Part shown: one piece after another, positions 49,549-62,442 of the stretch | Position numbering within the stretch: the first letter of the stretch is position 1 | Layout: each line of letters opens with the position of its first letter | From: Marinobacter sp. | Lineage (GTDB): Bacteria; Pseudomonadota; Gammaproteobacteria; Pseudomonadales; Oleiphilaceae | Reading direction: 5' to 3' | DNA: 64,000 nucleotides | NCBI GenBank assembly: GCA_018402255.1 | Contig: JAGYIS010000007.1 | Span: forward strand, 1 to 64,000 | Notes under the pieces: model-generated | What the model saw: only the letters and a program-made list of their open reading frames with translations | The model's database searches: none | Told to the model about the DNA's origin: nothing | Position numbers and translations under genes: made by a program

Positions 49549-49555
49549 TTGATAG

Positions 49556-49584
49556 CCGGGGCAGCAAGTCTGCCCCGGTTTCAA
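49556..49584. terminator. Bidirectional terminator after acnA
   Basis: CCGGGGCAG (49556-49564) pairs with CTGCCCCGG (49570-49578), followed by TTTCAATTTT. It lies between acnA and the convergent end of the HlyD-like gene, whose stop codon is inside the tail. Confidence 0.9.
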
Positions 49585-50597
49585 TTTTGCCAGAGTCTTT
49601 GCAAGACGTTAGGAAACCGGGCAGTTAAGGGCAGATTGTCTTTCTGCCACTGATCGTCGAACGGTGTCAGGGGCTCTGCTTTGAGTACCAAGTGAGGTTC
49701 ATCACCGCCAAATGGGCCTCGAAGGTTGGGTGGCAGGCGCTGTAATTGAGGTCCGACAGAGACCACAGTGGCTTGCTGCCATTCGCCATCAGGGGTTCGC
49801 ACTCGCAGAGTTTGTTCAGGTTGTGCCAGTTGGCCATGTCTGGCAGGTAAATAGACAATCAGTTCGGGTGGTTGAGCGGGTCTGATCGTGGCAATCAATG
49901 TGCCTGGTCCAACATTTTCACCCTCTGTGACTTCGATGGTTTCGATAACGCCCTCGACAGGTGTCAGAACCTGGAGCCTTTGCAACTGGCCTTCAAGTAG
50001 TTTTCGTTCCTGTTCGTTACGGAATCGGAGACGTTGCTCGGCAACGCTCTCCCCAAGCGATTGCCTGTAAGAAATGAGGTCTCCTGCGCGGGCATCGCGG
50101 ATGTCTTCAGCCGCGCGGAGTTCGCCAAGTGTGGCCGCGCCAGTGCGGACAAGTTTTTCGATGTCTCTTACCCTGGCTTCAGCACGTCCCAACAGCTGTT
50201 GAAGGTGATTTTCGAATTGCGCCTGTGATGAGTCCAGCGGTGGTTGTGCCAGCTCACCCAGTTGGTCGAACTGTCGGCGTAGATTGGCATTTTCAAGCTT
50301 TGCCAGTTGCTGACCGGCGCGCACAGTGTCCCCTGGCCGGAGTCTAAGCTCGCTCACTGACCCAGGCTCTAACGCCCGGACGTCCATGGTGGGTACAACC
50401 AGGACGGCGGGCGTTTCAAGTAACAGAATGCCAGACACCAACTTAACCATGAACCAAACGAAGGGCGCGCTGACAAGCGCCAGTATCAGGTACCACCTGA
50501 GACGAAACGCCATTCTCTTGCCGGGAGCATAGAGTACTTTCAGGCCCTCGTCGCGGGTCGGGTTTTTCTCTTTATCGCTACTGAAACGTACCTTCAT
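49581..50597 (-). CDS. HlyD-like membrane fusion (adaptor) protein
   Basis: The 338-residue protein has one N-terminal transmembrane helix (about 33-58), a biotinyl/lipoyl-like half (VSELRLRPGDTVRAGQQLAKL), a helical hairpin (about 100-200) and the second lipoyl half (TPVEGVIETIEVTEGENVGPGTLIATI). This is the periplasmic adaptor of a tripartite envelope channel. It is the last gene of the operon with a TolC-like partner and a glycosyltransferase, so it probably joins synthase to outer-membrane factor in polysaccharide export. Alg44-type function is possible, but no PilZ domain is visible. Confidence 0.85.
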   Translation of the reverse strand: MKVRFSSDKEKNPTRDEGLKVLYAPGKRMAFRLRWYLILALVSAPFVWFMVKLVSGILLLETPAVLVVPTMDVRALEPGSVSELRLRPGDTVRAGQQLAKLENANLRRQFDQLGELAQPPLDSSQAQFENHLQQLLGRAEARVRDIEKLVRTGAATLGELRAAEDIRDARAGDLISYRQSLGESVAEQRLRFRNEQERKLLEGQLQRLQVLTPVEGVIETIEVTEGENVGPGTLIATIRPAQPPELIVYLPARHGQLAQPEQTLRVRTPDGEWQQATVVSVGPQLQRLPPNLRGPFGGDEPHLVLKAEPLTPFDDQWQKDNLPLTARFPNVLQRLWQN

Positions 50598-50606
50598 GTT
50601 GGCGCT

Positions 50607-52689
50607 TTACTCCATGCCTCTTTGGTCATTGCCCGGATAGTACCGCCATGCTTGCCAGGCGACGCCTGCCACGCCAATACCTCGCCATGAAGCCTGCCAT
50701 TGGCCTTCCAGGCTAGCCAGTCGGGACCGGCTTTGCCCGTGCCAGCTATTGGTGTCAGGAAGTTCTGCTTCGACGCTCTGCACCACCGTAAAGGTAAGGT
50801 CGGGCCAGAGTTCAATCGCCGTCGAGGCGAGCTGGCCGACACGATCGGTATTGGTGCTGTAGATCATCACCGAGACATCATGAATGCCGAACTCTGGCAA
50901 CTGACAAGGCACGCATACTGTTTTGGCGGTGTTCGGGTCTGTAAACCAGCGATGATGGGCCACCAGACTGACCGGCCAGGGACTTGCCTCAACGGCCAGA
51001 TCAATGGTGTCCGCCCAACCCCTGAGCAGGGTATCGGGTACCGGCCAGGCAAGTTGTTCGACCTCCAGGTCCAGATGAAGCCTGCGAAAGGGAACGTCTG
51101 CGAGGCTGGTGATCAATCGGCCCAGATTGGCGCGATGGTCGTCTGTCAGCCACAGCGGTTCACCCAGCAATAAATCCGTTTTAATACCGTGCTGTTCGGC
51201 AGCCGTGATGGTTTGTGTCAACGCTGTCACCAGATGATTGTCTTCCAGTTGAGCTGCTGAGACACCCAGGTATATTGCGTCAAAACCCGAGTCCTTAAGG
51301 TTGTCCAAAACACGGTCTCTGGAACGTTGATCGAGGAGCTCCTTGCTGTCCCAGACATAGACGGCCTTCGACCAGTTTGGTCCCTGGTCTCCTGTGTGCA
51401 AGGTGGGTGGCGATGCCAGAATCCGTTGCTCCGAGTGGTCCGGTTGCAGGCGATCAAACACTTTCAGCGGAGCCAATGCCTGCCATGCACCGTGTTGAGC
51501 CAGGATCAGTGCCTGTTCGGAGCGTGCAAGCTCCAGGGTGAGGTTGCGTAAACGTACAAATCCCTCTTCTGCCTCGATAGACTGCCGTTGCCTCTGCTCT
51601 TGCAGGCGTACTTCGGCCAACTCGACCCGTTCCCGCGCAAGCTCGAGATTCTGGTATTCATCTCGATACGTCTCCAGAGCCTGGTTCAGCTCCCGCATTA
51701 TGCTCTCTTGCGCGTCAAGCCATCGGTACCTTGCTGCTGATTTCTGGGTTGCAGCAGTCTCGCGACGGGTCGACAGGCTCCCGAGAGGTACTTCAAAACT
51801 GAAGGCTGCGACCAGTCCAGTGCCGGTGCCAGAAATATCGCTGCGCCTGTCTAACTGCTGGCTGACGGAAACCCGGGCATCGATGTCATCATACCAACGA
51901 TCATCATACTGCTGTCTGGACAACCAGATCAGACGCTGCTTCCTGACGTCTGGGTGCGCTTGAATAACGTTCGCCCATTGCTCAACGTCTGGAATCCGGT
52001 TTGGAAGTTCCTCGAAGGCTGCTGTGTGGGCGGCGGTCAATTCCGGTCTGACCAAACGATTCAGGGCGTGGCGCGCCTGGGCCGCATCCTTTCTTGCCGG
52101 GGCACAGTCGCGCAGATTCTGGCGCCAGCCTTGCTCCAGCCAGATACGTTCAGAGTCCCGTAGTTCCTGATTGGCATGACGCGTAGCAATCCGTTCTAGC
52201 TCAAGACCCGCCAAGCGATGCTGTTGGCTGCACAGCTGCTGGAGTTGCTGAGCTCGCCACCAGTCGGCATAGTGCAGGCGGGCCTCGAGTTCCTGCTCGG
52301 CCCGGGCCGTGTCTGCATCCGCTTCCATCGTTTCCGCGGTTGTGTATTCGTTTTGTGTTGCCTGTTGTCGTGTTCTTCAACGTACCCAGCAGTGGATGAC
52401 TCAAGCCAATGCGTGCTCCGTAACCCTGGTACTCGACACGGCCGGCGGTGGCGTCCAGCTCGCGGAAGCTGCCTGTGTCTGCGCCACCAAAGAGCGACCA
52501 CCCTTCGCGGGATGATGCACTGTCGGCTCGGGACAAAGCGGTCTTTTGCTCTGCCCGGATGGCATGAAGACGATCCGAATCTTCAAGATTGTCTACCAGC
52601 TGTGCAAGGGGCACGCTGGTGTCTGCCGAAACCCCGCTCGAGAGCGTGAGGGCGCACAAATATAGCGTTCGGTAGAGAGAAGTTGGCAT
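50607..52689 (-). pseudogene. TolC-like outer membrane factor fused to a glycosidase-like domain, frameshifted
   Basis: The start ATG at 52689 overlaps the glycosyltransferase stop (TGATG). The N-terminal frame gives a signal peptide (TLYLCALTLSSGVSA) and the TolC-type start ending RIGLSHPLLGTL. A one-base insertion (or two-base deletion) near 52377 moves the rest into another frame, which reads RTRQQATQNEYTTAETMEAD then a long helical TolC-like region (to about codon 320 of that frame). From there a ~250-residue domain follows (VYVWDSKELLDQRSRDRVL, DAIYLGVS, LHLDLEVEQLAW, WRGIGVAGVAWQAWRYYPG) with a TIM-barrel-like strand-helix pattern. Apart from the single shift the gene is intact, so a sequencing error or a recent mutation is likely. 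Functional reading: export channel with a built-in polysaccharide-cleaving domain. Confidence 0.7.
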
Positions 52690-54020
52690 CAGAATCGCTT
52701 GCCTTTTTTCAGGACCCACCAAGGCGCCATGCTGCTTTCCTCATGGCCCCTTCGGAACATTTCATTGAGTGTGCAGACCACGCCCCAGCATCTTAGCGCA
52801 AGCATAAACACCGGGAAGATCGGAATGACGATAGCAAGCTTAAGGTCCTCCTTCGGTCGTTCCGAGATCAGACACAGGCCCAACAGGTAAAACACCAGCG
52901 TGACGGCGAAATACAACGAATAAAGCAGAAGAGCAAGAATCAGCAAGCTGTCTACCGGCAGTACGATCAGGCCCAACAGGCAATACCCAACGATCAGAAA
53001 CGGCAGAACAAGCTGGAAGAAAAAGCCGCTGGCCAGCGTCATCAGAAAATTGCGCCATCCCAGGATTCGGGGTGTCATGCTGTCTGCGTGTTTGCGTATG
53101 TAGAGGAAAAACAGATCGCCGTCCCACCTCAGGCGTTGCATGAAAAACGCCTTCAGGGTATCGGGTGCATCGGTATGGCCGACCGCCTCAGGCTCAAAGG
53201 GTATGCGAAGCTCGCGGCGGCGCCCGAAATAGCTTTTTATCCTGAGTGTGACATCCAGATCTTCTGCGGTATGTGTATCCCATCCGCCGATGTGTTTCAG
53301 AAAGTCCCGGCGGAAGGCGCCAAACGCCCCTGATATGTTGTTGACGGTATTCCACTCTGACAGGCCGGTCTTGGAGGTGTGAATCGATAGGAAATACTCA
53401 AATGCCTGAATAAGTGTGGCAAACGACGTCCAGGCGTTTCGCACCCGGAGACTTCCAGAGACGGCCGGTACGTTTGGGTCCTCAAAATGTCGCACCATCA
53501 TCGCAACCATGTTGTTGTCGAACGATGTGTCGCCATCGAGAGCAAAGATGATGTCGCCGGTCGCCATATCGAGGCCGGCGTTGAGGGACGATACTCGCCC
53601 GCCTCGTTGCCATTTGGCGATCGGTCTGACGGTGCGGTTTGGATGGAGGTGGTGGTCAACCTGAAACCTGCGCACGGTGTCCATGGTGACAGTGTTGCTG
53701 GTAGCACCGTCGACAACCGGGATAAGTTCAATCTCTCCAGGGTAGATTTGCTCGCAGAGGCTGGTGAGGGTTTTGGCCACATCGGGACCCTCGCTGTAGC
53801 ACGTGATGATGCATGACACCTTCGGTCGGTAGAAGCTTGGTTTAGGTGTGGAAGACAATTTACGGAGAGACCAGCGCAAGATGCCTGCAATCACCAACAG
53901 GTTGAGTGGCAGTTCCAGTAACAGAAAGAATGGAAACAGCATGAGAAACACGCGGGTAACCCCGTCTGCGCTGCCCAGGCTCATCAGTATTTCTGTCATA
54001 TTCAAAAGCGCCTGATCCAT
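52689..54020 (-). CDS. Processive family 2 glycosyltransferase (polysaccharide synthase)
   Basis: This protein of about 443 residues starts at ATG 54020, overlapping the upstream stop (TGATG). An N-terminal membrane helix (about 20-45) precedes the GT-A domain: nucleotide site CIITCYSEG and VVDGATSN, DxD in ALDGDTSFDN, catalytic TAEDLDVTL, and QRLRWDGD, the QxxRW motif of processive synthases such as BcsA, PgaC and HasA. Several C-terminal membrane helices follow (about 315-400). It should polymerise and extrude a beta-linked polysaccharide; the sugar cannot be read from sequence. Confidence 0.9.
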   Translation of the reverse strand: MDQALLNMTEILMSLGSADGVTRVFLMLFPFFLLLELPLNLLVIAGILRWSLRKLSSTPKPSFYRPKVSCIITCYSEGPDVAKTLTSLCEQIYPGEIELIPVVDGATSNTVTMDTVRRFQVDHHLHPNRTVRPIAKWQRGGRVSSLNAGLDMATGDIIFALDGDTSFDNNMVAMMVRHFEDPNVPAVSGSLRVRNAWTSFATLIQAFEYFLSIHTSKTGLSEWNTVNNISGAFGAFRRDFLKHIGGWDTHTAEDLDVTLRIKSYFGRRRELRIPFEPEAVGHTDAPDTLKAFFMQRLRWDGDLFFLYIRKHADSMTPRILGWRNFLMTLASGFFFQLVLPFLIVGYCLLGLIVLPVDSLLILALLLYSLYFAVTLVFYLLGLCLISERPKEDLKLAIVIPIFPVFMLALRCWGVVCTLNEMFRRGHEESSMAPWWVLKKGKRF

Positions 54021-55399
54021 CACCCTGAAACTTCGCCCCCAAGCCGTGCCATCAGCAACGTGCCATCCTCTTGGGCAAGCAGGTCGGTGGGCAGAGTGAA
54101 TCCCGCGATTCGAATATCAAATCGCACATCATCCTGTTCATGGAAGTTCTGGATGAGGTTGGCTAATCGGCCCCGAAGTATGTTCATGCCGTCCCGATCG
54201 GTACTGGGAAGAAGGAGCCACAGTTGTTCCTCGTTCGTGCGAGTGCAACGATCGGTCTCTCTAACTGCCTCCCTGATTCGGTCAATCAAACTGTCCAGTA
54301 ACGTCATTGCCCGGCTTTGAGTCATGGTCTCCCGGAGGTTGGCAAACCTCAGCACCATGAGTGAGCCATGAGGGAGTACGGAGTATCGCCGAACCTGTTG
54401 GATCTGCCAGTCAAGAAGGTTCCGGAATGCGTCGGGATTGATCAGGTTGAGTCGGCCAAAATGTGCCTCGGCCCCTGACTCACTGAACCCCTGACGACAA
54501 CGCAAGCGACCGCGTTCAGTCAGTGTGAATGCCCGAATTTCGCGAACCTTGAGGTCATCCGGCTGATGATGCTCATCGCAATCCAGGCAGCGGGCCTCCA
54601 CATCGGCATCAACAAAAAAACTTTGGCAGGCCTGGCAGCGGTAGTTTTCAAGAGGACGATCGTAGTCACTGCCAATGTGGCGCAATCTGGCCAGGCAGTT
54701 GGGGCAGATCATTACGCCATCTTTCAAAAAGTGTTCCTGGGCGCCAACATGACCACAAGTAAAACAGTGAAGGGCCGGTTGACGAGCAATCTCCAGAGCA
54801 TTGCATTGAGGGCAGACATCAACGTAATTGAGGTGGCCTGAGTTGCAGTCTCGGCACAGCCTTATCCGGTCTATCAGTTCTCCGGGCTGAAGCCAGTTCT
54901 GCTCCTGCATCAGCTTTAACCAGACAAACTGATTTACCGGTTCATCTGAAGACATGGCCTCGAGCAAAGGGTAGTGATAGATGTTCGCGCGCTCCGGCAA
55001 TCGCTCGGGCTCAATTCGTTTTCGCGGGTGCGCCCAAAGCCAGGCAATGACCCGTTCGTCGAAACGTTCAGGCTTTTTCCCCAGATTGAATGAGTCCAGG
55101 CGCTCCTTCCATAACCGCCATATCGGCAAAACATTATCATTGCTCAGATTCACAACGCCATCGACCAGTAATTCGTCTGTTTCCGTTGCCGAGAGTATAA
55201 GAGCTAATCGGAATGACTCATGAGATCGCAGTTGGCGAACAAGAGGTGAAATCTTTTCAGGAGCAACATCAATAACCAGAGCGTCGAAAGACCCTGCCTC
55301 AACCAATTGCTCGGGCCTGCTGACATGGCTCCAACCATCCGGGAGGCCAGGATTTTTGAGTTCCGACATCAAAAAAACACGTGGGTAGGTGTGACTCAT
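54020..55399 (-). CDS. TackOD1-like zinc-ribbon protein with degenerate GGDEF
   Basis: The 459-residue protein begins with a receiver-like but incomplete domain (about 1-100). A middle region with three paired-cysteine ribbons follows (CRDC...CPQC, CFTCG...CPNC, CQAC...CLDC at about 180-275), which I assign to the TackOD1 metal-binding domain. The C-terminal domain (about 300-455) is GGDEF-shaped but reads NEEQLWLLLP in place of GGEEF, so it should not make c-di-GMP. The inhibitory-site arginine and aspartate remain (RETD five residues before). This is the arrangement used by PelD as a c-di-GMP receptor. First gene of the polysaccharide operon. Confidence 0.85.
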   Translation of the reverse strand: MSHTYPRVFLMSELKNPGLPDGWSHVSRPEQLVEAGSFDALVIDVAPEKISPLVRQLRSHESFRLALILSATETDELLVDGVVNLSNDNVLPIWRLWKERLDSFNLGKKPERFDERVIAWLWAHPRKRIEPERLPERANIYHYPLLEAMSSDEPVNQFVWLKLMQEQNWLQPGELIDRIRLCRDCNSGHLNYVDVCPQCNALEIARQPALHCFTCGHVGAQEHFLKDGVMICPNCLARLRHIGSDYDRPLENYRCQACQSFFVDADVEARCLDCDEHHQPDDLKVREIRAFTLTERGRLRCRQGFSESGAEAHFGRLNLINPDAFRNLLDWQIQQVRRYSVLPHGSLMVLRFANLRETMTQSRAMTLLDSLIDRIREAVRETDRCTRTNEEQLWLLLPSTDRDGMNILRGRLANLIQNFHEQDDVRFDIRIAGFTLPTDLLAQEDGTLLMARLGGEVSG

Positions 55400-55658: not shown

Positions 55659-57713
55659 CTACAGCGGTTGCTCAAGGGATAGCTCAAGCCAGAAGGTGGC
55701 GCCTTTGCCTTCAGTTGACTCGAAATCAACGCTGCCACCCATTTGCGTCATGATCTCCCGCGTAATCGCCAGTCCCAGACCGGTACCCTGCCTGCCCCTT
55801 GTGCTTGAACTGTCGGCCTGGGCAAATTTCTGGAAGATGCGAGATCGAAAACTGTCGGGAATGCCCGCGCCGTGGTCTGTGACCGAAATTCTGAATTGCT
55901 CAGGCAATAGTTTGGTAGAAACCTCTACGCTGGCACCCTCGTCTGAAAACTTGGCAGCGTTTGAGAGCAGGTTGATCAGTGCCTGGCTGAGGCGTTGAGC
56001 ATCGAACCAGGCCTCTATATCCGGGTGAGCCTGCTCACGAATAACCTGTATTTGCCGGCTCTCCAGATAAGGCGCCAGGCGCTCGATCGATTCCTCGATA
56101 ACCGGCGCGACAGGTTGTCTGGCCGGGTGCATGGGCATGCGACCAGACACCAGTTTTTCAATGTCGAGCAAATCATTGATCAGATGTTTGAGCTGTTCGG
56201 TATTTCTGAGGGCAATAGACACCATCTGTTGAGCTTTCTCGGGCAATTGTCCCAGAGAACTGCTGTTGATAAGGCCCAGTGAACCGGCAATCGAGGTCAG
56301 CGGTGTGCGAAGCTCATGGCTCACCGTGGAAATAAACTGGCTTTTCATTTCCTCGATTCTGTGGCGTTCATCAATGTCTGCAATGTATCCGTGCCATAGC
56401 ACACTGCCATCGGGCAGTTGCTCCGGTCTGGCGGTTCCCTCAACCCAATGCCAGCTGCTGTCTTGCCAGAGAACGCGATATTTCTGTATCCATGGGGTCA
56501 AGTTGTCGGCCGATATCTTTATAGAATCGGCGACAACCGCCAGGTCATCCGGGTGAATGCGTTCGAAGGCAGGCGAGGCATCCTTGGCAGCCTGTTCTGC
56601 AGTGATCTGGTAAATGGCCCGAATTCCACTGCTGGTATAGGGAAAGGTGCTATGTCCGTCGGGCCACAGACGGAACTGGTACAGCATGCCCGGCGCGTTA
56701 GCGACCAGTTTGTCGAGTACTTCTGTGTGCTTTTGTTGCTGAATTATATCGGTAATCCAGCGACCAAGAAGGTTGACGAATGTCTTTTCAGTCTCCGTAA
56801 ATCCGGGGCGGCGGGGGAGTGCTGAGGAAAAGTTCAGCGTGCCGAACAGCTCGTCGTCAATCCATACCGGCGCAGCCAGGTAACTCTCCAGCTTGAATTT
56901 CTGATAACAGGGATGATCACAGAAACGGGAGCGCGCCATGTGGTCAATGGCAAGAACTCGGCCCTGTGCCGCCAGAAGTGAGCAGTAGGTCTGCTCCAGC
57001 GGAAAGGTTATGCCATCTTCCAGAGACGTCTGGTGCCGCTCGTGATGCCACAGGACCGTGTAAACGCCGCCAGTGATATTGCTGACAATGGCGGTATCCA
57101 TTTTGAGATATTGAGTCGCATTGGCAAGCGCGTGTTCGATTCGCTTAGAGACGCTGCCACGGGAGTCCAGAGAAATGTCATTCAGGATGTTCAGTGCCTG
57201 AGTTCTCTCAGCATAGTAGGCGCCGAGCTCCTGATACTGAAATTCCCGCTCGACCAGATCAGCAAAATCGCGCAGCGTCCTTTGATCGTCGCTGGAAAAG
57301 GTTCTCGGCTTCCTGTCAATCAGGCACAAGGTGCCCAAATGTAAGCCATTCCGGTCACCCAGTGGAGCACCCGCGTAAAAGCGGATGTCGGGTTCGCCAG
57401 TGACCAGGGGATTGTCTGCAAATCGTTCGTCCTGTAGTGCATTTTCAACCACGAAGGTATCGGCGCCGAGGATTGCATGGCCACAGAAGGAAATGTCGCG
57501 GGCCGTCTCGCGAACGCCGAGGCCGTAGCAGGATTTGAACCACTGGCGGTCCCTGTCAATGAGGGAGACCAGGCATATGGGCACATCAAAGGTTGTGGCG
57601 GCGAGCCTGGTGATTCGGTCAAATCGTTCTTCTGGCGGTGTGTCCAGCAGCTGAGCTGCTTCCAGAGCAGACAGTCGTAAGGTTTCGTTTTGGGGCCGGT
57701 CTGGCGTTCTCAT
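55659..57713 (-). CDS. Cytosolic GAF-GAF-PAS histidine kinase
   Basis: The 684-residue protein has no transmembrane segment. A first GAF domain (about 15-165: FDVPICLVSLIDRDRQWFKS, DISFCGHAI) is followed by a second GAF (about 180-330), a PAS domain (about 345-450) and a HisKA domain with SHELRTPLTSIAGSL (His about 465). The HATPase has LINLLSNAAKF and GTGLGLAI. No receiver is attached. Its start overlaps the stop of the membrane kinase (ATGA), so the two are produced together. Confidence 0.92.
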   Translation of the reverse strand: MRTPDRPQNETLRLSALEAAQLLDTPPEERFDRITRLAATTFDVPICLVSLIDRDRQWFKSCYGLGVRETARDISFCGHAILGADTFVVENALQDERFADNPLVTGEPDIRFYAGAPLGDRNGLHLGTLCLIDRKPRTFSSDDQRTLRDFADLVEREFQYQELGAYYAERTQALNILNDISLDSRGSVSKRIEHALANATQYLKMDTAIVSNITGGVYTVLWHHERHQTSLEDGITFPLEQTYCSLLAAQGRVLAIDHMARSRFCDHPCYQKFKLESYLAAPVWIDDELFGTLNFSSALPRRPGFTETEKTFVNLLGRWITDIIQQQKHTEVLDKLVANAPGMLYQFRLWPDGHSTFPYTSSGIRAIYQITAEQAAKDASPAFERIHPDDLAVVADSIKISADNLTPWIQKYRVLWQDSSWHWVEGTARPEQLPDGSVLWHGYIADIDERHRIEEMKSQFISTVSHELRTPLTSIAGSLGLINSSSLGQLPEKAQQMVSIALRNTEQLKHLINDLLDIEKLVSGRMPMHPARQPVAPVIEESIERLAPYLESRQIQVIREQAHPDIEAWFDAQRLSQALINLLSNAAKFSDEGASVEVSTKLLPEQFRISVTDHGAGIPDSFRSRIFQKFAQADSSSTRGRQGTGLGLAITREIMTQMGGSVDFESTEGKGATFWLELSLEQPL

Positions 57714-59485
57714 AAATGCTCCTCGCCCCGGTGATTGGCTTCAGGAAGCTCCAGCCAGAAGTGGGCGCCATTTGAGTAATCATAGCCCACCTCCCCGGAC
57801 ATCAGATGGGCAAGTTCCCGGCATATGGCAAGCCCGAGTCCGGTGCCGGCTTTTGCTCGATTGGAACCGGCTTCTGCCTGGGCAAATCGTTGGAACAGCT
57901 CCGGCAGGAAGTGCTCAGGAACACCGTCACCCTGATCGGAAACCGTTATACGTACAAAACCGGGGATTGAGGAATGTGCTTCGACTGTGACGAAACCACC
58001 CTTGGGAGAATATTTAATGGCGTTGCTGATAAAGTTATCAAGGACTTGGCGAAGCCGGGCCGGATCCGCAAAAACGCTGAGGCTGTCATCGCTTTTGGCA
58101 ACAATTTTTACGGAGTAATGCCTGGCCATCGGCTGGTTCCCGACGCACGCAGCCTCAATAGCGTCAATCAGGTCGATGTCACGCATCTGGACGCTGAGTT
58201 TACCGGCCACGGCCTTTTCAAAGTCCAGAAGGTCGGTAATCAGTGATTGCAGCTGCTGGCCGTTGCGTAAAGCCAGCTCAACCATGGCTGAGGCCTTCGG
58301 CGGCAACTCGCCGGCGGAGCCGGATTGCAGTAATTTCAGAGCGCCATTGATAGATGTCAGCGGCGTGCGCAGCTCATGACTGACGTTTGATACGAACTGG
58401 TTTTTCAGGATATCCAACGCTTCCCGCTCTTCCATCAGTGTGTTGAATGCTTTTGCCAGATTTCGGGTTTCCGCCGGCCCCTTGGTAGTCAACCGTTGAG
58501 TGGAAGAGCTGTCTGTTGTCATCCTTTTGATCTTTTGGGACATGCCGCCCAGTTGGCGCGTCGCAGCTCTGGCCACAACATAGGTCATAAGCAGTAGTGG
58601 AAGCGTGGTGATTAAACTGATCCATAAAAACCCGCGAAACGATGCTCGGGCAGGTTGAATAGCTTGCTTATAAGGTGCTGCACTAAGAAATAGCCAGCCA
58701 AGCCGCTCTAGATGTTGGGAGCTGTATACCCAGCGTTGCCCGGAAAAATCTGTGACCACACCGAAGGGGATGCCGGACAAGGCAGCGTCGATCAATGGAT
58801 CCTCACCCGGGTCTGGAAGGAAAGGCGCCGGTTGATCCTTTTTCAGGGCATCCACCTGGACGAAGTTTCCGGTGTCCAACACCTTGAGAATAGTGCCATT
58901 ATCAGTCTTAATCTCCTCAGGAAGAATTCCTGCCTCTGCCAGGTTGATGGTGCCACCGGCCAGTCCAAGTAAGTCGCCATCATCACTTTCAATCGGTGCG
59001 AGAAACGACAACAGGGGCAAGCCTGTTGTTCGTCCAATGATTGGCCGGCTGACAATCGGCGAGCGGGATTGTACGGCCCGTTTGAAATGGGGGCGATCAG
59101 CGTACGAAGTTCCCAGCCGGTTCGGAACAAAACGATTTTCAGCAAGAGCGACGCTCTGGTCATCGAATATCAGCAGACCGCCGCCAAACAGTCGTTCCAG
59201 GGCGGGTTGGCGTCCCAGCAACATTTCGAGTTGCGGTAGGGGTAACAGATTGTTGCCGTCAGTCAGCACACTGGCAAACGCTCCCAATGCATTCAGGCGT
59301 ATAGTCAGTTCCTCGTTTACCCGACTGGCGGCCGCCGATGTCTGCAGCGCCTGGCGCTCTGTAAGTACCTGCTCAAAATCGCGAAGCAGTCTGTCGTAGG
59401 CAATAAAAAGAATCAGAGCTACGCTGATAATGATGCTTGAGCTGGCAATCAGCACAATGCGAGCGTTGAGGCTTAAGGTTCGCAA
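57710..59485 (-). CDS. Membrane histidine kinase with periplasmic CACHE-like sensor
   Basis: The 591-residue protein has transmembrane helices at about 8-28 and 280-305, enclosing a ~250-residue extracytosolic domain of the dCACHE/PDC type (VLDTGNFVQVDALK, GVVTDFSGQRWVYSSQ). A HAMP-like linker leads to HisKA with SHELRTPLTSINGAL (His about 370) and HATPase with DNFISNAIKYSPKGG and GTGLGLAI. Kinase core and neighbour kinase are close paralogues. It is divergently oriented from the Hpt-REC-GGDEF gene (94-bp gap). Confidence 0.92.
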   Translation of the reverse strand: MRTLSLNARIVLIASSSIIISVALILFIAYDRLLRDFEQVLTERQALQTSAAASRVNEELTIRLNALGAFASVLTDGNNLLPLPQLEMLLGRQPALERLFGGGLLIFDDQSVALAENRFVPNRLGTSYADRPHFKRAVQSRSPIVSRPIIGRTTGLPLLSFLAPIESDDGDLLGLAGGTINLAEAGILPEEIKTDNGTILKVLDTGNFVQVDALKKDQPAPFLPDPGEDPLIDAALSGIPFGVVTDFSGQRWVYSSQHLERLGWLFLSAAPYKQAIQPARASFRGFLWISLITTLPLLLMTYVVARAATRQLGGMSQKIKRMTTDSSSTQRLTTKGPAETRNLAKAFNTLMEEREALDILKNQFVSNVSHELRTPLTSINGALKLLQSGSAGELPPKASAMVELALRNGQQLQSLITDLLDFEKAVAGKLSVQMRDIDLIDAIEAACVGNQPMARHYSVKIVAKSDDSLSVFADPARLRQVLDNFISNAIKYSPKGGFVTVEAHSSIPGFVRITVSDQGDGVPEHFLPELFQRFAQAEAGSNRAKAGTGLGLAICRELAHLMSGEVGYDYSNGAHFWLELPEANHRGEEHL

Positions 59486-59579
59486 GAAAGGCCCTTATAC
59501 GAATGGCTGTCAAAGATAAAACATGCTTTGATGAGAATAGTGCATTAGATGTTGTGAATAAAATAGTGAGGAATGCCTT

Positions 59580-61277
59580 TTGAACAATACAGCCGTTGAT
59601 CAGTTGCAGGAGCGACTTAGGCTTCTGCAGGAACGGTTTTTCGAGCGCGCCCGGGGCGACGTTGAAACGCTGTCAGGGTTCGCGCGCTTGATTGATCAGC
59701 AACAGCTGCCGAAGGTGGAGCTGGAAAAGTGTTATCAGTTGTTGCACCGGATGGCGGGCTCCGCGGGGACATTTGGCTTACCCGAACTGGGCCAGGCGGC
59801 CAGGGCGATAGAAAAGCAGATGAAGGCACAGCTTGAATCGGCGACCGATAGCGGTGCAGATGGATTGGTTTCTGTTTCAGTGGCCGTTGCTGATGAACTT
59901 CGACAACTTGCCACGCTGCTTGAGAATGCACCTGAAATGGCCACTTCTGCATGTGCTCAGGCCGAAGCAGATTCACATGACGGGGCCCATGGCATGCAAG
60001 TCAATGTCATGGCGCTCGGGCACAACCTTGATTATCTGGCGGACCTGGTCAAATCGTTAGCCGTCTACGGTTTTGTCTGTGAGTCTGGCTCTGTTGATTG
60101 CCCGAACGACATTGCTGTTCGTCTCAGAGAGCGCTCCAGTGCCTCGATTTTGCTGTGTGAGGACTCAGGGCTGGGCGACGTCATGGGCTTTCGTGAGCAA
60201 TATTTACCGAAAGCCGAGCACCGCAGGTTTCCGGTGGTATGTGTTGGCCACGAAAACTCGTTTGAGACTTTGTACCGGGTTGCAGAACAAGGGGCAACTG
60301 CCTATTTCTGTGAGCCACTGGACATGCCGGAGCTGGCAGAGCGGATTGAATCACTGGTGCTGGAACGCGGTTCCCGTCCCCAGGGCCGGGTGTTGATTGT
60401 TGATGATGATCTGGAACTGGGAGAGCACTATTGCCTGGTGCTCAAGCAGGCTGGCATCATTGCTCGCCTGGTTTCTGACCCGGCAGAGTTGATGTCGGAA
60501 CTGTCGGCGTTTGAGCCGGACCTTGTATTGATGGATGTTCAGTTACGGGACTATTCCGGCGTTACGCTTGCCAGACTGATACGTTATGAGCCGCGCTGGC
60601 TGGGTTTGCCCATTGTGTATCTGTCATCGGAGGACAATCCTGAAAATCAGTTAGATGCGTTGTCTAAAGGCGCCGATGAGTTTCTGGTGAAGCCGGTCAC
60701 CGATGATTACCTTGTCCGGTCGGTGCGGATTCGTTGTTACCGTGCACGCCAGTTATCAGACCTGATGAACCGTGACAGCCTTACCGGGCTGCTCAAACAC
60801 TCCCTGATCAAGCAGGAAGTCGACAGAGAGCTGGCCCGCTGTCGCCGTGCCGGTCACACCTCGTGTGTGGTCATGCTGGATCTGGATCACTTCAAGCGGG
60901 TAAATGATACCTGGGGACATGGTCAGGGCGATATTGTCATTCGTACCCTGGCCAACCTGTTGCGCAACCGGCTGCGCGAGTCTGATGTGATCGGGCGTTA
61001 TGGTGGCGAAGAGTTTCTGTTGATTCTGCCCGATTGTGAGCCGGTGGTGGCGGTGAAACTCATCGAAGCCATTGGTAAGAGTTTTGCCGAACTCGTGTTC
61101 TGGGCAGGAGATGACAGCTTCCAGGTTACCTTGAGTGCAGGCGTCGCTTTGATCAACGATTTCCCTGTTTCCGATCAAGCCATCGAGGCGGCTGATCAGG
61201 CACTCTACCAGCGAAAGCGGGATGGACGTAATGGTGTAACTCTCTACCATCCGTCTCTACGCGGTATAAAAGTTTGA
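59580..61277 (+). CDS. Hpt-REC-GGDEF phosphorelay diguanylate cyclase
   Basis: The 565-residue protein starts at TTG with GAGGA upstream. It contains an Hpt domain with the phosphorylatable histidine in LLHRMAGSAGTFG (about 56), a degenerate receiver (about 135-260), a normal receiver with acceptor Asp in LVLMDVQL (about 318) and lysine in EFLVKPV, and a GGDEF domain with GRYGGEEFLLI (about 476) and I-site RESD. It should make c-di-GMP under control of phosphorelay, and it lies near the degenerate-GGDEF polysaccharide regulator, which may be its readout. Confidence 0.93.
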   Translation: MNNTAVDQLQERLRLLQERFFERARGDVETLSGFARLIDQQQLPKVELEKCYQLLHRMAGSAGTFGLPELGQAARAIEKQMKAQLESATDSGADGLVSVSVAVADELRQLATLLENAPEMATSACAQAEADSHDGAHGMQVNVMALGHNLDYLADLVKSLAVYGFVCESGSVDCPNDIAVRLRERSSASILLCEDSGLGDVMGFREQYLPKAEHRRFPVVCVGHENSFETLYRVAEQGATAYFCEPLDMPELAERIESLVLERGSRPQGRVLIVDDDLELGEHYCLVLKQAGIIARLVSDPAELMSELSAFEPDLVLMDVQLRDYSGVTLARLIRYEPRWLGLPIVYLSSEDNPENQLDALSKGADEFLVKPVTDDYLVRSVRIRCYRARQLSDLMNRDSLTGLLKHSLIKQEVDRELARCRRAGHTSCVVMLDLDHFKRVNDTWGHGQGDIVIRTLANLLRNRLRESDVIGRYGGEEFLLILPDCEPVVAVKLIEAIGKSFAELVFWAGDDSFQVTLSAGVALINDFPVSDQAIEAADQALYQRKRDGRNGVTLYHPSLRGIKV

Positions 61278-61287
61278 GAGGTGCCTG

Positions 61288-62442
61288 TTGAAAGCATTGA
61301 TACTGGAAGATGATGAGCTGGTGGGTGAGCTGCTTGAGACTGTCGTAGCGGGCATTCATCAAGGCGCTGCCGTCAGTCTTGCCCGATCCCTGGCCGAAGC
61401 TCGGCAAATAGTTGATGGGGGTGGCGGGTATCAGTTGTATCTTATCGACTGGCAGCTGCCAGACGGCTCCGGGCTTGAGTTGGTAAAGCGGGTGCGCGCT
61501 CATGATGCTGACGTGCCCATTGTGATGGTCTCCGGCAGGTCTGACCGGGAATCCGTTCTCAGGGCGGCTCACCATGGTATCAGCGGCTACATTACCAAAC
61601 CCCTGGATGTGCAGTTATTGCATGAACGCCTGACCAAACTGGTGCCGGTCGAAGCCGCTGCTCATGGCTCCGCAGATGAGTATTTGAAGGCGTCATTGAA
61701 TTCGGTGGTTCAGTTGCCGGCGGACATCGATCCTGCAGATGTGCTGGATCTGATCGGCCGGCAGCAAGAATTGTCGCCGGCTCAGCTGGCGGAGCGTTGG
61801 CGTGAAGAAACGGCACTGACGGCCCGCCTGCTGGACGTGGCCAATAGCAGTTCATTCCGGCGCACGGGTAAGCCGGTGGAATCTCTCAGAGACGCCATCA
61901 GCAACATGGGCGTGGCCATGTCCTTGAATCAGGCCCTGGCGCTGTCACTGGACGTTGCCGGCAAGATAAACACCCCGGATCTGCAGGCCCAGGCCAGGGC
62001 ATTCCATGACATGGCATTGCGGGTGGCACGTGAAGCTCAGAAGCTGGCGGTCAGGTTGGGGAAAGCGCCCACACTGTTCCAGCAGGCTGGTCTGTTAAGC
62101 CGCCTGGGAGAATTGGCAGTTCTCAAGGTACTGAACCAATTCAGTGTAGAAGGTGGCTCGCTGAGCAGTTCAGAAGTGGAACAGTGCCTGGGCCAGTGGT
62201 CCCAGGATTACGGCAATCGGCTTAAAGTGCAGTGGAAGCTACCGCTGAACCTGAGAGAAATGATTGGCGCCGTGCATTTCTTGCCGAAAGACAGTACCCG
62301 TGAGGATCGGCTGGTAATGCGGGCTGCCGCACTGATTGCCGGAGCGCAGTCAGAAAGTGAAGACTGTCAGCGACTTTTACGGCGTATTGGTCTGGAACAC
62401 AAACCATCCACAGAGGAGACGCCGCATGATATCAGTCACTGA
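61288..62442 (+). CDS. REC-HDOD response regulator
   Basis: The 384-residue protein starts at TTG; GAGAGG precedes it. The receiver (about 1-120) has acidic residues in LEDDELVG and an acceptor in YLIDWQLPDGSG, with ITKPLD. The C-terminal domain (about 140-330) is HDOD-type (helical HD-related output) with ALTARLLDVANSSSFRR. HDOD proteins act as scaffolds or regulators of signalling. It follows the Hpt-REC-GGDEF gene by 10 bp and overlaps the next gene. Confidence 0.9.
   Translation: MKALILEDDELVGELLETVVAGIHQGAAVSLARSLAEARQIVDGGGGYQLYLIDWQLPDGSGLELVKRVRAHDADVPIVMVSGRSDRESVLRAAHHGISGYITKPLDVQLLHERLTKLVPVEAAAHGSADEYLKASLNSVVQLPADIDPADVLDLIGRQQELSPAQLAERWREETALTARLLDVANSSSFRRTGKPVESLRDAISNMGVAMSLNQALALSLDVAGKINTPDLQAQARAFHDMALRVAREAQKLAVRLGKAPTLFQQAGLLSRLGELAVLKVLNQFSVEGGSLSSSEVEQCLGQWSQDYGNRLKVQWKLPLNLREMIGAVHFLPKDSTREDRLVMRAAALIAGAQSESEDCQRLLRRIGLEHKPSTEETPHDISH

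What the first reader, a model, noticed from the sequence alone, without database searches (positions are those of the whole stretch)
49581..55399. Undescribed-looking c-di-GMP-responsive polysaccharide secretion operon
Four leftward genes, three of them coupled by one-base overlaps, combine a TackOD1/degenerate-GGDEF protein, a processive GT2 synthase, a TolC-like channel with a glycosidase-like domain and an HlyD adaptor. Tripartite TolC/HlyD channels are known mainly for protein and drug export, not for synthase-dependent polysaccharides, which typically use Alg/Pga/Bcs/Pel barrels with TPR proteins. I know of no named system with this composition.
Basis: partly seen in the sequence, partly recalled or inferred. 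Interest (0 to 1): 0.8.

Follow-up and report, generated by a model that had tools for sequence, protein, structure and literature searches.

The report
Biofilm sugar machine with TolC channel
This four-gene operon, found with the same gene neighbours in many bacteria, most likely makes a sticky biofilm sugar when a cell signal is high and pushes it out through a channel normally known from drug and protein export, though that has not been tested at the bench.

Summary
The four genes are real and correctly placed (49581-55399, minus strand), but the TolC-like gene C is frame-broken near 52372-52376. The linkage is strong: 76 of the best 80 named loci carry A-B-C-D, and the other four end at a contig end. 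Protein A has the cyclase motif in 0 of 300 readable sequences (window included) but keeps the RxxD c-di-GMP site in 296, so it looks like a receptor. B is a processive-type GT2 synthase. In an intact relative (L008) C is a TolC fold fused to a glycosidase-type barrel with invariant Asp/Glu. D is a HlyD adaptor. Best reading: a c-di-GMP-gated, synthase-dependent polysaccharide exporter using a TolC/HlyD conduit with a built-in glycosidase. It is not wholly undescribed: Shewanella mxdABC reads alike by described role and order, Bgs pairs GT2 with HlyD, and a TolC route is proposed for cyanobacterial cellulose. Mxd kinship could not be tested (no S. oneidensis sequence obtained). New are the OMF-glycosidase fusion and the breadth of the family. 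Export route and polymer are inferred; in 29 of the 80 loci C lacks the TolC half.

The parts
54020..55399 (-). Gene A: weak CheY-like N-part, TackOD1 zinc-ribbon domain, degenerate GGDEF; likely c-di-GMP receptor
   Evidence: Many relatives are named 'diguanylate cyclase', but 0 of 300 readable sequences have GG[DE]EF
54521..55075 (-). TackOD1 domain (PF18551); 12 Cys columns near-invariant
   Evidence: 8.1e-66; 10 Cys columns 302 of 302, the other two 296 of 302 and 296 of 298
54134..54445 (-). Degenerate GGDEF domain (active-site position reads NEEQL)
   Evidence: 0.0011, below Pfam cut-off; profile A1 against PDB chain 3ign 2e-7
54251..54262 (-). I-site RxxD (RETD, residues 380-383)
   Evidence: RxxD in 296 of 300 readable sequences, window included
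52689..54023 (-). Gene B: membrane GT2 synthase (GTG at 54023, or ATG at 54020 giving TGATG)
   Evidence: DGD, TAED, QRLRW; 4 hydrophobic segments
53124..53138 (-). QRLRW motif of processive GT2 enzymes
52372..52689 (-). Gene C, N-terminal piece in its own frame: signal peptide and start of the OMF
   Evidence: tblastn with L008, L009 and L059 proteins
50607..52376 (-). Gene C, C-terminal piece in another frame: rest of the TolC-like OMF plus glycosidase-like barrel (listed ORF 50607-52328)
   Evidence: (OEP 1.9e-8)
50610..51398 (-). Glycosidase-like (beta/alpha)8 domain of C
   Evidence: Model m4a2639ebea4c, pLDDT 93.9
51063..51080 (-). LHLDLE motif with invariant Asp and Glu at the end of strand 4
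   Evidence: Asp and Glu in 44 of 44 aligned sequences
49581..50597 (-). Gene D: HlyD/RND-type periplasmic adaptor with N-terminal hydrophobic anchor
49554..49580 (+). Terminator-like hairpin between the operon and the convergent aconitase gene
   Evidence: 8 terminator-like sites found in the region, mean 5.9 in shuffles, so weak

Best explanation
The operon encodes a c-di-GMP-gated, synthase-dependent exopolysaccharide machine. Protein A binds c-di-GMP at the kept RxxD site of a catalytically dead GGDEF domain, as PelD does, and switches on the GT2 synthase B. B polymerises and threads the chain through the inner membrane. The HlyD protein D bridges the periplasm to a TolC-like trimer formed by C, and the barrel tethered to the periplasmic C-terminus of C trims or cuts the polymer. 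Shown by computation: gene linkage, domain content, motif loss and retention, both folds. Inferred: c-di-GMP binding, activation of B, polymer export through C, hydrolase activity. The polymer is unknown; GH8, GH16 and galE neighbours of single relatives hint at a beta-glucan-like chain. In this particular genome C is frame-broken, so the system may be crippled here, or the break may be an assembly error.
Confidence: 0.68

Rival explanations
1. It is simply a lineage of the Shewanella Mxd exopolysaccharide system: A is MxdA, B MxdB, D MxdC, and the OMF-GH gene is an addition to that known machine.
For: Published roles and order agree: MxdA binds c-di-GMP and is the proposed effector, MxdB is a GT2, MxdC resembles an efflux pump (PMC3691769, PMC7666153, PMC11395469; passages). 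Eleven of 107 loci scanned, including Plesiomonas and Photobacterium, show the three-gene A-B-HlyD order.
Against: No S. oneidensis sequence could be obtained (searches found none). mxdD is described as without known homology.
Confidence: 0.45
2. The HlyD-TolC pair exports a protein or small molecule, and the GT2 glycosylates or lipid-links something else; the operon is not a polysaccharide exporter.
For: HlyD and TolC families are mostly known from protein and drug export (established knowledge). The best NCBIfam matches of D are RND and type I adaptors, all below cut-off.
Against: The row itself consists of only these four genes, without a pump or substrate gene (the flanks were not searched for pumps). 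The GT2 has QRLRW and membrane segments, and a glycosidase-type barrel is fused to the channel. GT2-HlyD pairs make a mixed-linkage glucan in rhizobia (PMC9495663, PMC7902896, passages).
Confidence: 0.12
3. In this genome the operon is a decaying, recently acquired island without function.
For: C is frame-broken. In the relatives sample no other genome of the same genus has a TackOD1 match. A complete copy of the row lies on a 29-kb mobilizable Aeromonas plasmid.
Against: A, B and D are open frames with their motifs. A single frame break may be a sequencing error. Overlapping starts are preserved. Operon GC (0.53-0.58) does not stand out from the window's 0.564.
Confidence: 0.3

Closest known systems
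Shewanella oneidensis Mxd system (mxdABCD)
   Same: By published description: first gene a c-di-GMP-binding effector, second a GT2, third an efflux-pump-like protein; needed for biofilm structure (PMC3691769, PMC7666153, passages)
BgsBA mixed-linkage beta-glucan system of rhizobia
   Same: GT2 plus HlyD-type protein, activated post-translationally by c-di-GMP (PMC9495663, PMC7902896, passages)
   Different: c-di-GMP binds the GT2 C-terminus; described as a bicistronic operon, without a GGDEF-derived receptor, OMF or glycosidase in the passages read
Cyanobacterial cellulose XcsA-XcsB-TolC proposal
   Same: Synthase, HlyD-like adaptor, TolC-like channel and an endoglucanase proposed as one route (PMC12430437, passages)
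   Different: TolC is not in the operon, the glycosidase is a separate protein, the synthase carries a PilZ domain; the review calls the model unvalidated
Pel system, protein PelD
   Same: Degenerate GGDEF with intact RxxD as post-translational c-di-GMP receptor (PMC7112168, passages)
   Different: Export through the PelB barrel porin (same paper); PelD has a GAF domain and no TackOD1 is mentioned in the passages read
PNAG system (PgaC synthase, PgaB hydrolase)
   Different: 143 bits against a cut-off of 422; no PgaA-type barrel and no deacetylase domain among the Pfam matches of the four genes

Membership tests
Synthase-dependent exopolysaccharide systems | Membrane-embedded processive GT2 synthase | tested here: met
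   DGD, TAED, QRLRW and 4 hydrophobic segments; Pfam GT2 families. Processivity itself not tested
Synthase-dependent exopolysaccharide systems | Post-translational c-di-GMP receptor in the operon | tested here: inconclusive
   RxxD in 296 of 300, cyclase motif in 0 of 300 readable sequences; binding not measured
Synthase-dependent exopolysaccharide systems | Outer-membrane porin with TPR scaffold (Alg, Pga, Bcs, Pel type) | tested here: not met
   The channel gene is a TolC-type OMF; no TPR family among the Pfam matches of the window proteins at E up to 1
Shewanella Mxd system | Order: c-di-GMP effector, GT2, membrane-fusion protein | tested here: met
   A-B-D in 11 of 107 loci scanned and A-B-C-D in the window, compared with published gene roles; a match of roles, not of sequence
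Shewanella Mxd system | Sequence homology to MxdA/B/C | tested here: inconclusive
   No S. oneidensis genome reached; no Shewanella name visible in the listed hits
Active diguanylate cyclases | GG[DE]EF active-site motif | tested here: not met
   Window NEEQL; 0 of 300 readable sequences
TolC/OMF channels | Two beta-hairpins and long periplasmic helices per protomer | tested here: met
   Model of the intact L008 relative, pLDDT 85.4; Foldseek TolC E 3.7e-15. The window copy is broken and was not modelled whole
PNAG synthase PgaC/IcaA | Score above curated NCBIfam cut-off (422 bits) | tested here: not met
   143 bits
GH18/GH153-type glycosidases | (beta/alpha)8 barrel with acidic pair on strand 4 | tested here: inconclusive

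The most novel reading that the evidence does not exclude
A widespread, unnamed class of c-di-GMP-controlled polysaccharide machines in which a TolC-type outer-membrane channel with a built-in glycosidase, reached through a HlyD adaptor, replaces the usual TPR-barrel porin, with a new TackOD1-GGDEF receptor family as the switch.
Probability: 0.4. Interest if true: 0.78.

Novelty: new variant of a known kind. Interest (0 to 1): 0.6.

Why it matters
A tripartite TolC/HlyD route for a synthase-made polymer has been proposed for cyanobacterial cellulose, but a 2025 review names as a doubt that synthase, adaptor and TolC are not encoded in one operon (PMC12430437, passages). Here synthase, adaptor and channel sit in one row in 47 of 80 named loci, the channel fused to a glycosidase-type barrel, which makes the route testable in ordinary laboratory strains. 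It also gives the TackOD1 domain a setting, since its function was called obscure (PMC5847659, passages). And it suggests that many proteins filed as diguanylate cyclases in Pseudomonas, Vibrio and Aeromonas are receptors that cannot make c-di-GMP.

Tried and rejected
Rejected: protein A as an active cyclase (motif in 0 of 300 readable sequences). Rejected: GT2 as a plain PgaC/PNAG synthase (143 against 422 bits). Set aside: a precise glycosidase family. Foldseek's top rows mix a GH18 chitinase, O-GlcNAcase and GH5 enzymes with lyases and other barrels. VIA puts Cwp19, PgaB and GH18 first but within one to two Z units of GH1 enzymes. A profile search of solved-structure sequences gave one weak hit, 10yv at 2.6e-4, plus two chance-level ones. 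A programmed frameshift in C was considered and dropped: 49 of the 50 loci classed as OMF-GH have it in one frame of 680 aa or more, L027 has 619 aa in one frame, and L127, classed apart, has both A and C split.

Led nowhere: the first genome-contig scan with one protein (49 pattern matches, none a relative). Finding S. oneidensis: a decaheme-cytochrome family in the class sample, a published mxd promoter primer searched in 1, 107, 23, 20 and 12 genomes and a recalled Shewanella 16S probe in 369 genomes all failed to lead to it, which may mean only that no Shewanella genome was in those samples or that the probe was misremembered. Papers not held: Thormann 2006, Gambari 2019, Maeda 2018 and one further DOI that I recalled for the 2011 MxdA paper. 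A recalled 'NVDEF' motif for MxdA comes from no call and is not used as evidence. PMC5567048 has no mention of BgsB or HlyD.

Limits of counts: one search used 302 sequences (the window, 283 listed proteins over 400 aa, 18 genes from later loci scoring over 200 bits), of which 300 were readable at the motif. The three searches behind them each list only their best 120 of 442, 202 and 220 hits. The sequences are related and partly redundant, so the counts are not independent events. One search scanned 107 loci: 50 A-B-OMF-GH-D, 29 A-B-GH-D, 11 A-B-D, 6 D-A-B, the rest partial, split or empty (L092, L143 without A). One search matched 27 of 369 genomes, 19 above cut-off; two weak ones of the 19 (G266, G288) were not looked at in context. 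Of the 16 class places fetched, L122 and L136 show A alone and L133 only fragments.
Full report
Observation. The window holds four leftward genes at 49581-55399: A (54020-55399), B (52689-54023), C and D (49581-50597). The A/B and B/C junctions both read TGATG, a one-base overlap, and C/D has a 9-nt gap. The longest C ORF (50607-52328) lacks the signal peptide and the first part of the channel.

Linkage. A scan of named genomes with an alignment of A relatives gave 131 relatives, of which the best 80 were fetched with up to 10 kb on each side. Scored with profiles for each gene, 47 of 80 have A-B-[OMF-GH]-D and 29 of 80 have A-B-GH-D, where C is only the glycosidase part. The remaining 4 (L024, L056, L066, L080) end at a contig end. 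The 80 are mostly Pseudomonas and Stutzerimonas, with Marinobacter, Vreelandella, Ralstonia, Cupriavidus, Burkholderia and others. In a class sample 27 of 369 genomes match TackOD1 (19 above cut-off); of 16 places fetched, 13 have A, B and D together, two have A alone and one is fragmentary. In a phylum sample 15 of 398 genomes match at E up to 1e-15, and all 14 further places fetched have A, B and D together, one with D only partial at a contig end. Three layouts recur: A-B-D (11 of 107 loci scanned, among them Plesiomonas, Photobacterium and a rhodobacterial plasmid), A-B-C-D, and D-A-B (6 of 107) preceded by a gene of about 690 aa. That gene's barrel matches the C barrel at 97.2% HHalign probability; Pfam finds no OEP in the five of these proteins scanned. 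A complete row sits on the 29-kb mobilizable Aeromonas caviae plasmid pKAM345_3, with B running across the record start.

Receptor. In the A family the GGDEF active-site motif is absent in 300 of 300 readable sequences (window included), while RxxD is kept in 296; the window reads RETD then NEEQL. A position 31 residues after the first Arg is Arg or Lys in 300 of 302. PelD proteins with dead GGDEF and intact RxxD bind c-di-GMP and need it for biofilm formation (PMC7112168, passages). MxdA of Shewanella is described as a c-di-GMP-binding effector that probably activates Mxd (PMC7666153, PMC11395469, passages). A stretch within the first 90 residues of A matches CheY-like chains only at chance level (E 0.42-0.57).

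Synthase and adaptor. B has DGD, TAED and QRLRW and four hydrophobic segments. Its best curated model is PgaC/IcaA at 143 bits, well under the cut-off of 422. D matches RND and type I adaptor models, all below cut-off.

Polymer hints. Single relatives carry GH8 (L091), GH16 (L125) or galE (L145) next to the row. This leans towards a beta-glucan-like polymer but is thin evidence; neighbours were not searched systematically.

Mechanism. Shown: linkage, domain content, motif loss and retention, folds. Inferred: c-di-GMP binding by A, activation of B, threading of the chain through D and C, trimming by the barrel. Against: 29 of the 80 named loci lack the channel half and 11 of 107 loci scanned have neither C part, so the channel must then come from elsewhere or the route differs.

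Comparison. The nearest described system is Shewanella Mxd (PMC3691769, passages). Gene roles and order agree, but sequence kinship could not be tested, since no S. oneidensis genome was reached and no Shewanella name is visible among the listed hits, most of which carry no name. The rhizobial Bgs pair (PMC9495663, PMC7902896, passages) and the cyanobacterial XcsA-XcsB-TolC proposal (PMC12430437, passages) show that GT2-HlyD pairs and a TolC route are not new ideas. The only paper found with the word TackOD1 calls the domain's function obscure (PMC5847659, passages).

Verdict. A real and broadly conserved operon; a new variant of synthase-dependent polysaccharide systems, with an OMF-glycosidase fusion and a TackOD1-GGDEF receptor as the new features. 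In this genome the channel gene is frame-broken.

Noticed in passing
window 52372-52376: Frame break in the TolC-like gene C; an assembly error or a true mutation cannot be told apart here
   Followed up: partly
window 55659-62442: Next to the operon lie ORFs that read like two sensor kinases, a response regulator with an intact RYGGEEF cyclase motif and a further receiver protein; a possible local c-di-GMP source (read from the translations, no domain search run)
   Followed up: no
L140 and L143 (NZ_AP024951.1): Complete A-B-C-D row on a 29-kb mobilizable Aeromonas caviae plasmid, with a methyl-accepting chemotaxis protein about 3 kb upstream and a recombinase gene downstream
   Followed up: partly
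L025-L065 (28 of these loci) and L084: In 29 of the 80 named loci, 28 of them labelled Pseudomonas, gene C lacks the TolC half and keeps only the glycosidase domain, so the fusion was lost or gained within the group
   Followed up: partly
P0010, P0066, P0145, P0221 and others: Public records name many of these TackOD1 proteins 'diguanylate cyclase' although the active-site motif is missing; probably a misleading annotation
   Followed up: yes
L127 (G143): A second locus in which gene A and gene C are both split between frames
   Followed up: no
L136 (G406:C1:1283000-1296000): A second, lone TackOD1-GGDEF gene without GT2 or HlyD profile matches nearby, in a genome that also has the A-B-D row (L132)
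   Followed up: no
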